From Actinomycetales bacterium (GTDB lineage Bacteria > Actinomycetota > Actinomycetes > Mycobacteriales > Micromonosporaceae), in NCBI GenBank assembly GCA_002919305.1, contig PKFB01000060.1, forward strand, positions 124,001 to 188,000: a stretch of DNA of 64,000 nt, written 5' to 3'. The position numbers were made by a program, and so were the translations under genes. Within the stretch, counting starts at the first letter, position 1; every line of letters begins with the position of its first letter. Shown piece by piece: positions 48,747 through 57,462 of this stretch. The notes under the pieces are model-generated. The model was not told the origin of the DNA. It searched no databases and worked only from the letters and a program-made list of their open reading frames with translations.

Positions 48747-49301
48747 TCAGGCGCTGGTGTAGGGGTTGGCGCCACCGTCGTAGCCGATCTCGGTGGTGTC
48801 GAAGACACCGTCGCCGTCGACATCGGTGACGATCGTCTCGGCGACCCCGTCCTCGTCCGCGTCGGTGATCACGCTCTCGGCGATCCCGTCGCCGTTGGCG
48901 TCGACGGTGAAGGTGTCCGCGTGACCGTTGCCGTCGCTGTCGATACCGATGGTTTCGATTACGCCGTCACCGTCGTTGTCGAAACCAACCTGGTCGACGT
49001 ATCCGTCAGCGTTGGTGTCGGCCTCCATGTAGTCCAAGGAGCCGTCGCCGTCGGTGTCGAAGTACTGGGTGTCTAGGGCACCGTCGCCGTCGGTGTCGAC
49101 ATCGAGCCGGTCAATGACACCGTCGTTCCCGCCGTCGAAAGCGATCGCGTCCGAGACGCCATCGTGGTCGAAGTCCACGCTGATGTAGGTCTCGTTCCCA
49201 CCGCTGTAGTTCTCAACCGTGATGTCATCTTGGATGCCGTCACCGTTGAGGTCTCCGTCGCCGTAGGTGTCGACTTCCATGCCGAGATCGGTGTCGCTCA
49301 T
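48747..49301 (-). CDS. Acidic protein with calcium-binding DxDGDG repeats
   Basis: 184 residues, very acidic and almost free of lysine. About ten short repeats of the DxDxDGxxD type follow one another, e.g. DLNGDGIQDD, DFDHDGVSDA, DTDGDGALDT, DTDGDGSLDY, DSDGNGHADT, DVDGDGVFDT. This is the pattern of EF-hand/thrombospondin type-3 loops that coordinate calcium in series. No signal peptide or membrane segment is visible, so it is either cytoplasmic or exported by a signal-independent route. ATG has AGGAGG upstream. It is a single-gene unit. The role may be calcium buffering or sensing; no known family name is certain. Confidence 0.8.
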   Translation of the reverse strand: MSDTDLGMEVDTYGDGDLNGDGIQDDITVENYSGGNETYISVDFDHDGVSDAIAFDGGNDGVIDRLDVDTDGDGALDTQYFDTDGDGSLDYMEADTNADGYVDQVGFDNDGDGVIETIGIDSDGNGHADTFTVDANGDGIAESVITDADEDGVAETIVTDVDGDGVFDTTEIGYDGGANPYTSA

Positions 49302-53615: not shown

Positions 53616-54077
53616 CGTTAATCCGACAGTGCCGGGTGCGGTCCTCACCGTCCACTGTCATCTCTTTGATATCGCTTGTATCGCCCGTGGGATTAGGGTC
53701 CGGTCGTAGCGATGTCAGGGGAGGCCTTTGAGGGCCACTCCGATACCGGGCGGCAAGGGGCCAAGAGGCACACGACGGCGGTGTGTGGAGCCAGCCAACC
53801 CCGGCTCAGTGTTGAGGCCGGCTTCGGGACACCGGCGGTGGCGTACTTCCCGGTTGACACCAAGCTGTAGCAGGACGTCATCGGGGCGCGGGGCATCAGA
53901 ACGGAGAGGTGGTATTGCGCGGACTGGGCAGAGTTGTCGGCTAGCCATCCCGTATTGAGGGGTGACAATATCTCATCTCACTGCATCTCATCTCACTGCG
54001 CTTCCGGTTGAGCGTTTCTGGCACGCCGGACACCGCGTACCCGATCCGCGATGTGAGTCGTCATGGAGGACCGGGCC
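53616..54077. other. Intergenic with 15-bp tandem duplication and a small open frame
   Basis: 460 nt. A perfect 15-bp tandem duplication ATCTCATCTCACTGC (53970-53984, 53985-53999) lies near its right end, 80 nt before the first gene of the nuclease pair. A small frame at 53712-53870 is listed separately. Confidence 0.5.
53712..53870 (+). CDS. Possible small protein, 52 residues
   Basis: ATG frame, about 80% G/C at third positions, ending VEAGFGTPAVAYFPVDTKL. No ribosome binding site or family. It may be the tail of a lost gene rather than a live gene. Confidence 0.25.
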   Translation: MSGEAFEGHSDTGRQGAKRHTTAVCGASQPRLSVEAGFGTPAVAYFPVDTKL

Positions 54078-55283
54078 ATGAATCAGCCAGGCCAATGGAC
54101 AGGCCCAGGCAATTGGGGGCCGCACGTTCCTGAGGTTCCGGCTGTGCCGCCCGAGCACAATTACAGACGTAAGGAGCGGCGGACGCTTCCTGCCGCCCTC
54201 AAGATTGTTATCGGAAGCGTGGTAGCCATCGGGCTGGTGCTGGTCGGACTGGCCATCCCGTGGGTCTTGCCGGATGAGGCACCGCCGATGCGGTGGGTGG
54301 GTGAGCATGACATCCTCGCCAACAGGCTCACGGAGGCGGCCGATGGCCTACGGCAGGTAGCGGGCGTCAAGTACACCGGATCCGTCACCAACGCGCACGG
54401 TGCTGAGATCAGCCTCGATATCGAGGTGGCCAACGAAGGATCGGCCTACGGCACCCTCGTCATCAATGGGATCGAGGTCGAGGTCATGGCGACGCCGGAC
54501 CACGCCTTCATCTGGGCCCAGGCTGCGTACTGGGAGGCTGTCGGTCTGGATCCCTACCTCATCGAGAACTACACCAGCACCTGGGTTCGGATCAATCGCG
54601 TGGGCTTCGGGTTTGAGGTGCTCACGACCTTGGCCCCCGTCTCCCTCGCTGATCTGTTGGAGCAGAGTGCCTCCACGGTGGAATCCGCTGAGGAGGTCGT
54701 CGACGACGGCGTATCAGGACGTCGTCTGCACACCTCTTTAGGGATCGTTACGGTAAGTGAGAGCGCGCCTTACCAGATTCTCGACATTGAACTTCAGCGG
54801 GTTGAGGGCGCACAGGCTCTGGATTTGGCCATTGAGCAACTCGACGCAGAGACCGTCAGGGCTCTCTACGAGCGTGTCCGCGCTGAGGTAGGGCTGCTGG
54901 AGAGGGCACTCGATCTGCTATTACCGGTGGAGTTTGAGGGAGACGAGGTAGTAGCTACCTGCACGTACGGCTCCTGCAGCACGCCTGTCATCATCGAAAA
55001 TTCTGTTGACGATGAATATGTGGACCCCAATGCCTATCTAACAATCTACGCTGTTATCACGGTCGAATTATTGCTCGATGGCGTGCCGGTGGGCTCCTGC
55101 GAGGAGCTGTGGGAGATGCCGTTGAACACCAGTGCGGTAATGCCCTGCAATGCCCAGATAGATGCGCCCTACTATATCGTCGCAGTACTTGGTGTCTGGC
55201 GGGCGGTTCCTGTAATCGGGGGTCACGTCAACACGCTGCTTGATCGACTATACGAGGCGGAAGAGAGCAACCCCGGCCTCTGA
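54078..55283 (+). CDS. Membrane-anchored exported protein, nuclease-less paralog
   Basis: 401 residues from ATG 54078 (GGAGG with 8-nt spacing). Proline-rich cytoplasmic N-terminus, one membrane helix (IVIGSVVAIGLVLVGLAIPW), then an extracellular domain with an LppX/LprG-like lipoprotein-fold pattern (AADGLRQVAGVKYTGSVTN, ISLDIEVANEGSAYGTLVIN, STWVRINRV). Four cysteines (CTYGSC; GSCEELWEMPLNTSAVMPC) match positions in the downstream gene and suggest two disulfides. The two proteins align along this whole stretch; this one stops at LYEAEESNPGL, the point where the other continues into a nuclease-like module. GC falls towards its 3' end, consistent with transfer. Function unknown. Confidence 0.85.
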   Translation: MNQPGQWTGPGNWGPHVPEVPAVPPEHNYRRKERRTLPAALKIVIGSVVAIGLVLVGLAIPWVLPDEAPPMRWVGEHDILANRLTEAADGLRQVAGVKYTGSVTNAHGAEISLDIEVANEGSAYGTLVINGIEVEVMATPDHAFIWAQAAYWEAVGLDPYLIENYTSTWVRINRVGFGFEVLTTLAPVSLADLLEQSASTVESAEEVVDDGVSGRRLHTSLGIVTVSESAPYQILDIELQRVEGAQALDLAIEQLDAETVRALYERVRAEVGLLERALDLLLPVEFEGDEVVATCTYGSCSTPVIIENSVDDEYVDPNAYLTIYAVITVELLLDGVPVGSCEELWEMPLNTSAVMPCNAQIDAPYYIVAVLGVWRAVPVIGGHVNTLLDRLYEAEESNPGL

Positions 55284-55575
55284 ACGACTGAGCGCACTCC
55301 AGACGCCGTGGAGGCGTGAACCCAGCGAGAGAGGCGACACTCTTCGCGTAACGGGCAGAATGGCTAGCGCTGGAGAGAGAATATCACCCTTTAGGTGTCT
55401 GATCTACGACTGAGGGGAGAATCCCTCTTTTCTAAGATGCGCAAGTGCGGACTTGTCGATTCGTCGTTTTAAGGCGAAATTCCGGTGTCGTGCCTCGGTG
55501 TTATTCCTCCTTGCCCTCTCCCCCCGCGCGGGAAGATCGGGATAGGAGGGCCTCTTTGACATATGAGGTGGCGTG

Positions 55576-57462
55576 ATGACCTGGCCGCCTGCCCATCCTG
55601 AACCGGGGTTGACGAACGTTACCGCCTCATCGGATCTCGGACCCGGTTCATGGGGCGGGAATCCACCGCACCTCACCACATTATCGAGCGTCGATACCGT
55701 CCGGATTACGCCTCCTGCGGAGCCGTCCCAGGAGGAAACAGTCCACAGTGGTCCACCACTGCATTCCGGAAGCGGGCGCTTCGTGGCCCTCACGCTCGCT
55801 CCCATCGGTTTCGTGTGTGTGGTGCTCGCCGCGTTGATCGTCCCGCCGTCGCTGAATTCGACGCCTGAGGAGTTGTGGTGGCGGGACCCTCATCAGCAAC
55901 TGCGTCACGCCGCCAATGAGCTATCGCTGTCTCCGGCCGTTCACTACACCGGAACTGTCACCCCCGAAACCGACGAGGTCGACAGTGCGCAGGTCACCCT
56001 TGATCTCGAAGTCACCTATGAAGGGTCCGCTCTTGGCACTGCCGTCCTCGACGGGATCGAGATGGAGGTGTTGGTTCTCCAGGGTCGGATCATGATCCAG
56101 GCGCCGGGGGAGTATTGGGAGACCGAGCTGGAGAACCCGGAGAGCGTTTCCATATATGCGGCGACCTGGGTCAGGGTCGCGCCCGAGGTGTTAGGAATTG
56201 ATATTCGTCGCTCTTTAGCGCCTCCCTCCCTCGCGGCATGGTTGCTGGGATCACAAAGCGTCATCGACGACGGAGAGATCACTGTCAACGGAGGACCTGC
56301 GCGCCGTTTGCTGACTTCTCGGGGCGAGGTGGCGATCAATGAAGAAAACCGAGTGTTGAGCATCGATGTGCAAACGACGGATCCGCAGGCTAGATCACAA
56401 TTCACTCTTCAGGAATTGACTGCCGAAGACGCCACTGATCTGTATCGCAGACTCACCCACGAGGCAGAGACCCTGGAGGGGCACCTCGACAGGGTGATGA
56501 ACATTTCGATGTCTTTTGTTCCTCAGGATAGTCAATGTTTTGTCGACGATTGTCGATACGTCATCACTATCACCAACTCGGTCGAGTCGACCAGCCCGTA
56601 CGTTGAACCAGACGAATATGTGTACCTCGTCGCCCACGTGGAGTTCCGCATCGCGGGCGAGATAGTTGCAGGGTGCGACGAAGTATGGCGCATGGAGGCG
56701 AATACCACAGCCACCATGTGGTGCTCCGTTCAGCTGCCCCCTGATGCTTCCGGGTGGGTCGATATCGGGGCACGCATTTCCTTTGGAGGCTTTACGCAAC
56801 CGCAAGTCGAGGACCTGCTGGGGCAGCTGTATCGGTCAGAATCGGACAACCCTGGGAGCTGTGCCCAGGAAGTCCGAGTGGCGTGCGCGGCGCTCACCCG
56901 GTTCTACGCCTCAATTGATCCCGCGGAGCGCATCTACCTTTCTGAAGGCGACGCTGGCCCAGACCCGACCGTACGTAACCCGGCCTCCCCGAACGAACCC
57001 CACCGCAGCTGCCCGGACTCCTCAGCGCTGTCCTACTACTACGGACAACTGATCGACGAGACTTTTGCCGGCGTTCATGCCCGGCTATGCGACCCGTTGC
57101 CGACCGGGAGTCCAGCGGCTCCGGACCTCGCGCCACCGGGGTACGCGGATGCCGGCGACGCTATCCAACGGTGCCACCTGATCCCCGAGGAGTTAGGGGG
57201 ATCAGGCGCGGTCGTGGAGAATCTCGTGGCCTGCCACCGGCAGGTGGCCGAGAGCGTACTCCCCGAGTATCAACGCCGGGTCCAGCAGGCCGTGGCCGAC
57301 GGACAGATCGTGGACTACACAATGATCGCCATCTATGGCAACGGCACCGACACCGTACCGACCGCGTTCGTGATCAGGGCCGTGGGGGACCAAGGCCTCG
57401 ACATCCATGTATTTATCGAGAACAACGAGGACGGGCAGGCCGTCGAGTTTCCGGCGCGATGA
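55576..57462 (+). CDS. Membrane-anchored exported protein with C-terminal NS_2/HNH-like nuclease domain
   Basis: 628 residues from ATG 55576 (GAGGTG with 5-nt spacing; a GTG at 55573 is in frame). Membrane helix LTLAPIGFVCVVLAALIVPP, then the same extracellular domain as the upstream paralog (AANELSLSPAVHYTGTVTPE, LDLEVTYEGSALGTAVLDG, TWVRVAPEVLG) with conserved Cys pairs (CFVDDC; GCDEVWRMEANTTATMWC). After LYRSESDNPG a cysteine-rich linker leads to the C-terminal module: QRCHLIPEELGGSGAVVENL with H534, VACHRQVAESVLPEYQRRVQ and QQAVADGQIVDYTMIAIYGN. This resembles the DNA/RNA non-specific endonuclease-type (NS_2) fold of polymorphic toxins, where that His and the following Asn are catalytic. 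It is a predicted exported effector; no immunity gene follows. Confidence 0.75.
   Translation: MTWPPAHPEPGLTNVTASSDLGPGSWGGNPPHLTTLSSVDTVRITPPAEPSQEETVHSGPPLHSGSGRFVALTLAPIGFVCVVLAALIVPPSLNSTPEELWWRDPHQQLRHAANELSLSPAVHYTGTVTPETDEVDSAQVTLDLEVTYEGSALGTAVLDGIEMEVLVLQGRIMIQAPGEYWETELENPESVSIYAATWVRVAPEVLGIDIRRSLAPPSLAAWLLGSQSVIDDGEITVNGGPARRLLTSRGEVAINEENRVLSIDVQTTDPQARSQFTLQELTAEDATDLYRRLTHEAETLEGHLDRVMNISMSFVPQDSQCFVDDCRYVITITNSVESTSPYVEPDEYVYLVAHVEFRIAGEIVAGCDEVWRMEANTTATMWCSVQLPPDASGWVDIGARISFGGFTQPQVEDLLGQLYRSESDNPGSCAQEVRVACAALTRFYASIDPAERIYLSEGDAGPDPTVRNPASPNEPHRSCPDSSALSYYYGQLIDETFAGVHARLCDPLPTGSPAAPDLAPPGYADAGDAIQRCHLIPEELGGSGAVVENLVACHRQVAESVLPEYQRRVQQAVADGQIVDYTMIAIYGNGTDTVPTAFVIRAVGDQGLDIHVFIENNEDGQAVEFPAR

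What the first reader, a model, noticed from the sequence alone, without database searches (positions are those of the whole stretch)
54078..57462. Paralogous pair: identical ectodomains, only the second carries a nuclease-like tip
The two proteins share one membrane helix, an LppX/LprG-like extracellular domain and four matching cysteines. The first ends at ESNPGL; the second has DNPGSC at the same point, then a Cys-rich linker and a C-terminal CHLIP...GGSG...ENL module like NS_2/HNH endonucleases of polymorphic toxins. This modular boundary, together with lower GC and a flanking 15-bp tandem duplication, suggests an exported contact-type effector whose partner or immunity role could lie in the short paralog. 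I know of no described system with this architecture.
Basis: partly seen in the sequence, partly recalled or inferred. Interest (0 to 1): 0.8.

Follow-up and report, generated by a model that had tools for sequence, protein, structure and literature searches.

The report
LprG-like carrier of variable toxin tips
Two neighbouring surface proteins share an outer domain that related soil bacteria use to carry many different toxin tips, but the nuclease-like tip seen here has lost residues it should need for cutting and has no recognisable protective gene.

Summary
The pair is real: ORF1 (54078-55283, 401 aa) and ORF2 (55576-57462, 628 aa) each have one membrane helix and homologous ectodomains (32% identical, not "identical"). 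The modelled ORF2 ectodomain has an LprG/LppX fold plus a four-cysteine beta-sandwich; ORF2 then carries an Endonuclea_NS_2 tip. So the ectodomain heads a polymorphic-toxin family for which I found no description. ORF2 itself is doubtful as a weapon: its tip keeps the general-base His but lacks the metal-ligand Asn and following Glu kept by all 13 compared domains; no gene abuts it; the genome holds no SUKH_6 or YezG-like gene at the threshold used. ORF1 is a tipless sister paralogue, a common kind in the family, not evidently immunity. Most likely ORF2 is a surface-anchored nucleic-acid-binding or altered nuclease offshoot of a toxin-carrier family.

The parts
53970..53999 (.). 15-bp tandem duplication (atctcatctcactgc x2), upstream of ORF1
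   Evidence: read directly from the sequence
54078..55283 (+). ORF1 (P0001), 401 aa, tipless paralogue: helix plus ectodomain (in-frame ATG at 54063 is an alternative start)
   Evidence: sister of ORF2 in the tree, support 100/98
54198..54269 (+). ORF1 membrane helix (about residues 41-64)
   Evidence: hydrophobic run read
54303..55277 (+). ORF1 ectodomain (LprG-like domain and four-Cys beta-sandwich)
   Evidence: alignments A2, A8
55576..57462 (+). ORF2 (P0002), 628 aa, tipped paralogue (GTG three bases upstream is an alternative start)
55780..55848 (+). ORF2 membrane helix (about residues 69-91), after a Pro/Ser-rich segment
   Evidence: read; helix 75-88 in the low-confidence full model
55873..56460 (+). 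ORF2 LprG/LppX-like domain (about residues 100-295)
   Evidence: ectodomain model pLDDT 77; LprG Foldseek E 4.6e-7 and Z 15.4, LppX Z 13.0
56503..56793 (+). ORF2 Ig-like beta-sandwich with four Cys (about residues 310-406)
   Evidence: Z about 8 to Ig-like domains of glycosidases and transglutaminases, i.e. only middling; conserved Cys
56860..57105 (+). Cys-containing linker between ectodomain and tip
   Evidence: read; low pLDDT
57133..57375 (+). Endonuclea_NS_2 tip (Pfam-matched part)
   Evidence: PF13930, 31.1 bits, cut-off 27
57175..57177 (+). His534, general-base position of the R-[GC]-H motif, kept
   Evidence: alignment
57247..57252 (+). Ala558-Glu559 where the metal-ligand Asn stands in all 13 compared NS_2 domains
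   Evidence: role of this Asn in PMC4220975
57271..57273 (+). Gln566 in place of the conserved Glu

Best explanation
ORF1 and ORF2 are sister copies, made by duplication in this lineage, of a membrane-anchored protein with an outer LprG-like (possibly lipid-binding) domain and a four-cysteine beta-sandwich. In actinomycetes this ectodomain serves as the carrier of a polymorphic-toxin family: behind it stand interchangeable toxin tips, sometimes after a HINT domain, with a small, probably protective gene directly downstream. ORF2 belongs to this carrier family and bears an NS_2 nuclease-type tip, but one without the usual metal-ligand Asn and following Glu and without an adjacent immunity gene. 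Shown: homology, varying tips, predicted fold of the ectodomain, the residue changes, the missing neighbour gene. Inferred: that ORF2 is displayed outside the cell and binds, or only weakly or unusually cuts, nucleic acid there rather than acting as a delivered toxin, and that ORF1 is a tipless carrier-type protein and not its immunity protein.
For: Homology of the pair and sister placement 100/98. Ectodomain relatives in 86 of 399 order-level and 33 of 395 class-level genomes. Tips differ behind one ectodomain: PT-HINT in L103, L108, L140, DddA-like in L129 (41.5 bits, cut-off 25), CDI EC869-like in L111 (27.8, cut-off 27), EndoU in L118 (25.0, cut-off 25.3; weak ectodomain match), NS_2 in L141 (34.9, cut-off 27) and in ORF2; PD-(D/E)XK-like, deaminase-like and papain-like by motif only. 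One supported clade (100/99) holds HINT, barnase-type, EC869-type and tipless forms. A barstar gene (34.8 bits, cut-off 23.4) follows the tip of L108. 14 of 16 non-NS_2 toxin-tipped genes abut a same-strand ORF against 14 of 60 other family hits (Fisher p 4e-6); none of the 5 NS_2 genes in that test does, ORF2 included. RHS-linked NS_2 toxins have adjacent SUKH genes, while the own genome has no SUKH_6 and no YezG-like match, with controls ringing. Fold: LprG Z 15.4. Asn to Ala/Glu and Glu to Gln in ORF2, both kept in all 13 compared domains; in GBS NucA this Asn is the only direct metal ligand, and changing it removed nearly all activity left in the H148G background (PMC4220975).
Against: No close orthologue of ORF2 was found, so the residue changes rest on one sequence; neighbouring Glu559 could hold the metal. 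The tip was not modelled with confidence. Immunity families other than SUKH_6 and YezG-like were not sought. Surface location is inferred from topology. The toxin class was assigned by me after the neighbours had been seen, and several of its rows are close relatives (L040-L043, L045/L086, L100/L101), so the p-value overstates the evidence.
Confidence: 0.58

Rival explanations
1. ORF2 is a working polymorphic toxin: the NS_2 tip is still a nuclease (with Glu559 or another residue holding the metal) and is delivered into neighbours, with immunity encoded elsewhere by an unrecognised gene.
For: Pfam match above cut-off and kept His534; family-wide toxin tips; intact ORF.
Against: Changed Asn and Glu; no abutting gene; no HINT domain; no SUKH_6 or YezG-like match in the genome, though RHS-linked NS_2 toxins do have SUKH partners.
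Confidence: 0.15
2. ORF2 and the other ectodomain-linked NS_2 proteins are not weapons but EndA/NucA-like surface nucleases for extracellular DNA, needing no immunity; ORF2 has a changed active site but is still a good catalyst.
For: No abutting gene in the 5 NS_2 loci and none that I read as immunity in the wider look; the NS_2 profile matches SPD1 and EndA structures.
Against: Catalytic positions changed in ORF2; no competence genes among the ORFs next to it.
Confidence: 0.2
3. ORF1 is the immunity protein or chaperone of ORF2.
For: Adjacent, same strand, same ectodomain.
Against: Tipless members are common elsewhere, often with no tipped gene in the stretch fetched; ORF1 is predicted to be extracytoplasmic, while the candidate immunity proteins of relatives show no signal to my reading; about 290 bp separate the genes and ORF1 lies upstream.
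Confidence: 0.07

Closest known systems
Polymorphic toxin systems (Zhang et al. 2012, PMC3482391)
   Same: Conserved N-terminal module, variable C-terminal toxin domains, HINT pretoxin domain in some members, small gene directly downstream, one of them barstar
   Different: The LprG-like plus beta-sandwich N-terminus is not among the Sec-type N-terminal domains listed in the passages read (MAFB-N, MicroscillaN, APD1, APD2, inactive transglutaminase); ORF2 has no HINT and no adjacent immunity gene
LprG/LprF/LppX mycobacterial lipoproteins
   Same: Predicted fold of the first outer domain (Z 13-15)
   Different: No PF07161 match; membrane helix instead of a lipobox in ORF1/ORF2; extra beta-sandwich and, in ORF2, a tip
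NS_2 / EndA-type nucleases (PF13930; EndA, SPD1, EsaD/EssD)
   Same: Pfam match, R-[GC]-H and NL motifs; profile match to solved EndA, SPD1 and EssD
   Different: Metal-ligand Asn and following Glu replaced in ORF2
SitA lipoprotein toxins of myxobacteria (PMC5562445, PMC8546572)
   Same: Envelope-anchored polymorphic toxins (from the abstracts)
   Different: Delivered by outer-membrane exchange; whether they hold an LprG-like domain was not tested

Membership tests
Polymorphic toxin system | Conserved N-terminal module with varying C-terminal toxin domains | tested here: met
   At family level:
Polymorphic toxin system | Immunity gene directly downstream | tested here: not met
   ORF2 has none; 14 of 16 non-NS_2 toxin-tipped relatives have an abutting gene
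Polymorphic toxin system | Releasing domain such as HINT (not present in all members) | tested here: not met
   No HINT match in ORF2; PT-HINT present in relatives L103, L108, L140
Polymorphic toxin system | Toxicity neutralised by the partner | not testable with these tools
   needs expression assay
Endonuclea_NS_2 (PF13930) | Profile match over the curated cut-off | tested here: met
   31.1 bits, cut-off 27; genome search 34.3 bits
Endonuclea_NS_2 (PF13930) | General-base His | tested here: met
   His534 aligned
Endonuclea_NS_2 (PF13930) | Metal-ligand Asn and following Glu | tested here: not met
   Ala558/Glu559 and Gln566; both kept in all 13 others
LppX/LprG family | Sequence match to PF07161 | tested here: not met
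   No PF07161 match for ORF1, ORF2 or relatives; the genome search rang in no control and shows nothing
LppX/LprG family | LppX/LprG fold | tested here: met
   Foldseek E 4.6e-7 to LprG; VIA Z 15.4 LprG, 13.0 LppX, on a predicted model
LppX/LprG family | Binds lipid | not testable with these tools
   needs binding assay

The most novel reading that the evidence does not exclude
The LprG-like outer domain is a lipid-binding delivery platform: actinomycetes display or hand over polymorphic toxins by way of a lipid-carrier domain, a delivery route not described before, and ORF2 is a disarmed or repurposed member of it.
Probability: 0.2. Interest if true: 0.8.

Novelty: new variant of a known kind. 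Interest (0 to 1): 0.62.

Why it matters
A carrier domain shared by many different toxin tips in actinomycetes, major antibiotic producers, points to an undescribed class of surface-borne protein weapons and gives a handle (the ectodomain profile) for finding more. It also offers a natural case of a toxin-type tip that has lost conserved active-site residues.

Tried and rejected
PF07161 search of the own genome: no match, but no control rang either. First genome-contig scan with ORF1 alone found nothing. The full-length AlphaFold model of ORF2 was too weak (pLDDT 50) and its Foldseek list uninformative, so the ectodomain was folded alone. Profile A2 against PDB sequences gave only weak, unconvincing matches. 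The ORF2 tip alone against PDB sequences gave only weak EndA matches, the NS_2 profile A7 clear ones. Literature searches for LppX/LprG-headed toxins found none; only an open-licence library was searched. SUKH_6 and YezG-like immunity families were sought in the own genome and not found. Rejected: identical ectodomains; ORF1 as immunity protein.

Full report
The window lies in a 4.94-Mb genome of 84 contigs.

The two ORFs are intact and homologous over nearly all of ORF1 (32% identity over 418 positions, E 1e-47). No third copy was found in the genome. The four cysteines align. ORF1 stops where ORF2 passes into a linker and an NS_2 tip (PF13930, 31.1 bits, cut-off 27), the only NS_2 match in the genome.

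The ectodomain alone, folded with six sequences, gave pLDDT 77. Its first domain matches LprG (Foldseek E 4.6e-7; Z 15.4 over 164 residues), LprF and LppX; RseB and LolA follow. The second domain is an Ig-like sandwich, with middling Z about 8. Sequence searches did not show the LppX link.

Relatives of the ectodomain were found in 86 of 399 order-level and 33 of 395 class-level genomes at the thresholds used. Many are tipless, among them forms upstream of a gene that looks like ffh. Others carry different tips: PD-(D/E)XK-like (L040-L043), papain-like (L044), deaminase-like (L045, L086) and REase-like (L100, L101, L142), all named by motif only; HINT plus tip (L103, L108, L140), EC869-type (L111), EndoU (L118, just under the cut-off and with a weak ectodomain match), DddA-like (L129) and NS_2 (L141), named by Pfam. 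The about 900-aa NS_2-type proteins L116, L120 and L121 match only part of the ectodomain profile, and L116 matches PF13930 only weakly. In a tree of 50 ectodomains ORF1 and ORF2 are sisters (100/98), and one clade (100/99) holds several tip kinds and tipless forms.

Downstream genes: 14 of 16 non-NS_2 toxin-tipped genes abut a same-strand ORF within -20 to +30 bases, against 14 of 60 other family hits (Fisher p 4e-6); the 5 NS_2 genes tested there, ORF2 included, have none. The toxin class was set by me after neighbours had been seen, and several rows are close relatives, so the p-value is a guide only. In a wider look at NS_2 loci of the ectodomain or 900-aa type, same-strand ORFs appear only further off and none reads as an immunity gene to me. 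RHS-linked NS_2 toxins have SUKH-type neighbours, over the cut-off in L015 and L021 and under it in L027 and in L008, which was not shown to be RHS-linked. The own genome gives no SUKH_6 or YezG-like match, while control genomes ring. The gene after L108 is a barstar, which together with the tip's sequence suggests a barnase-like tip; Pfam did not name that tip.

Active site: ORF2 keeps R-C-H and N-L, but at the place of the Asn that is the sole direct metal ligand in GBS NucA (PMC4220975) it has Ala558 or Glu559, depending on the gap, and the following Glu is Gln566. All 13 NS_2 domains compared keep both. Four further frames (L026, L033, L034, L125) did not match the motif used to cut the domains and were left out of that comparison.

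Reading: the ectodomain is the carrier of a polymorphic-toxin family; ORF2 is a member whose tip is probably inactive or altered and acts, if at all, outside the cell; ORF1 is a tipless carrier-type protein. Display on the surface and function are inferred, not shown. No paper describing LppX/LprG-headed toxins was found, but only an open-licence library was searched.

Noticed in passing
window 48747-49301 (-): A 184-aa ORF made of repeated DxDGDG-type acidic motifs, like calcium-binding repeats.
   Followed up: no
L053, L087, L088, L090: Ectodomain relatives of one family (f13) share a conserved small tip (WYERTP...AYLG...GRPFVAQFDR); in L087, L088 and L090 an aldo/keto-reductase-like gene follows on the same strand at a gap of 60-136 bases.
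   Followed up: partly
L054, L089, L091-L096, L099: Ectodomain relatives of family f15 share another conserved tip (VYSIGY...KYGVV); in L091, L092 and L093 a gene that looks like squalene/phytoene synthase follows closely.
   Followed up: partly
L143-L147, L149, L158, L159: Relatives with only a short tail stand directly upstream of a gene that looks like ffh (SRP54) in family f31, suggesting a housekeeping form.
   Followed up: partly
L113 (G004:C1:3884500-3896500): Three tipless copies in tandem on one strand.
   Followed up: no
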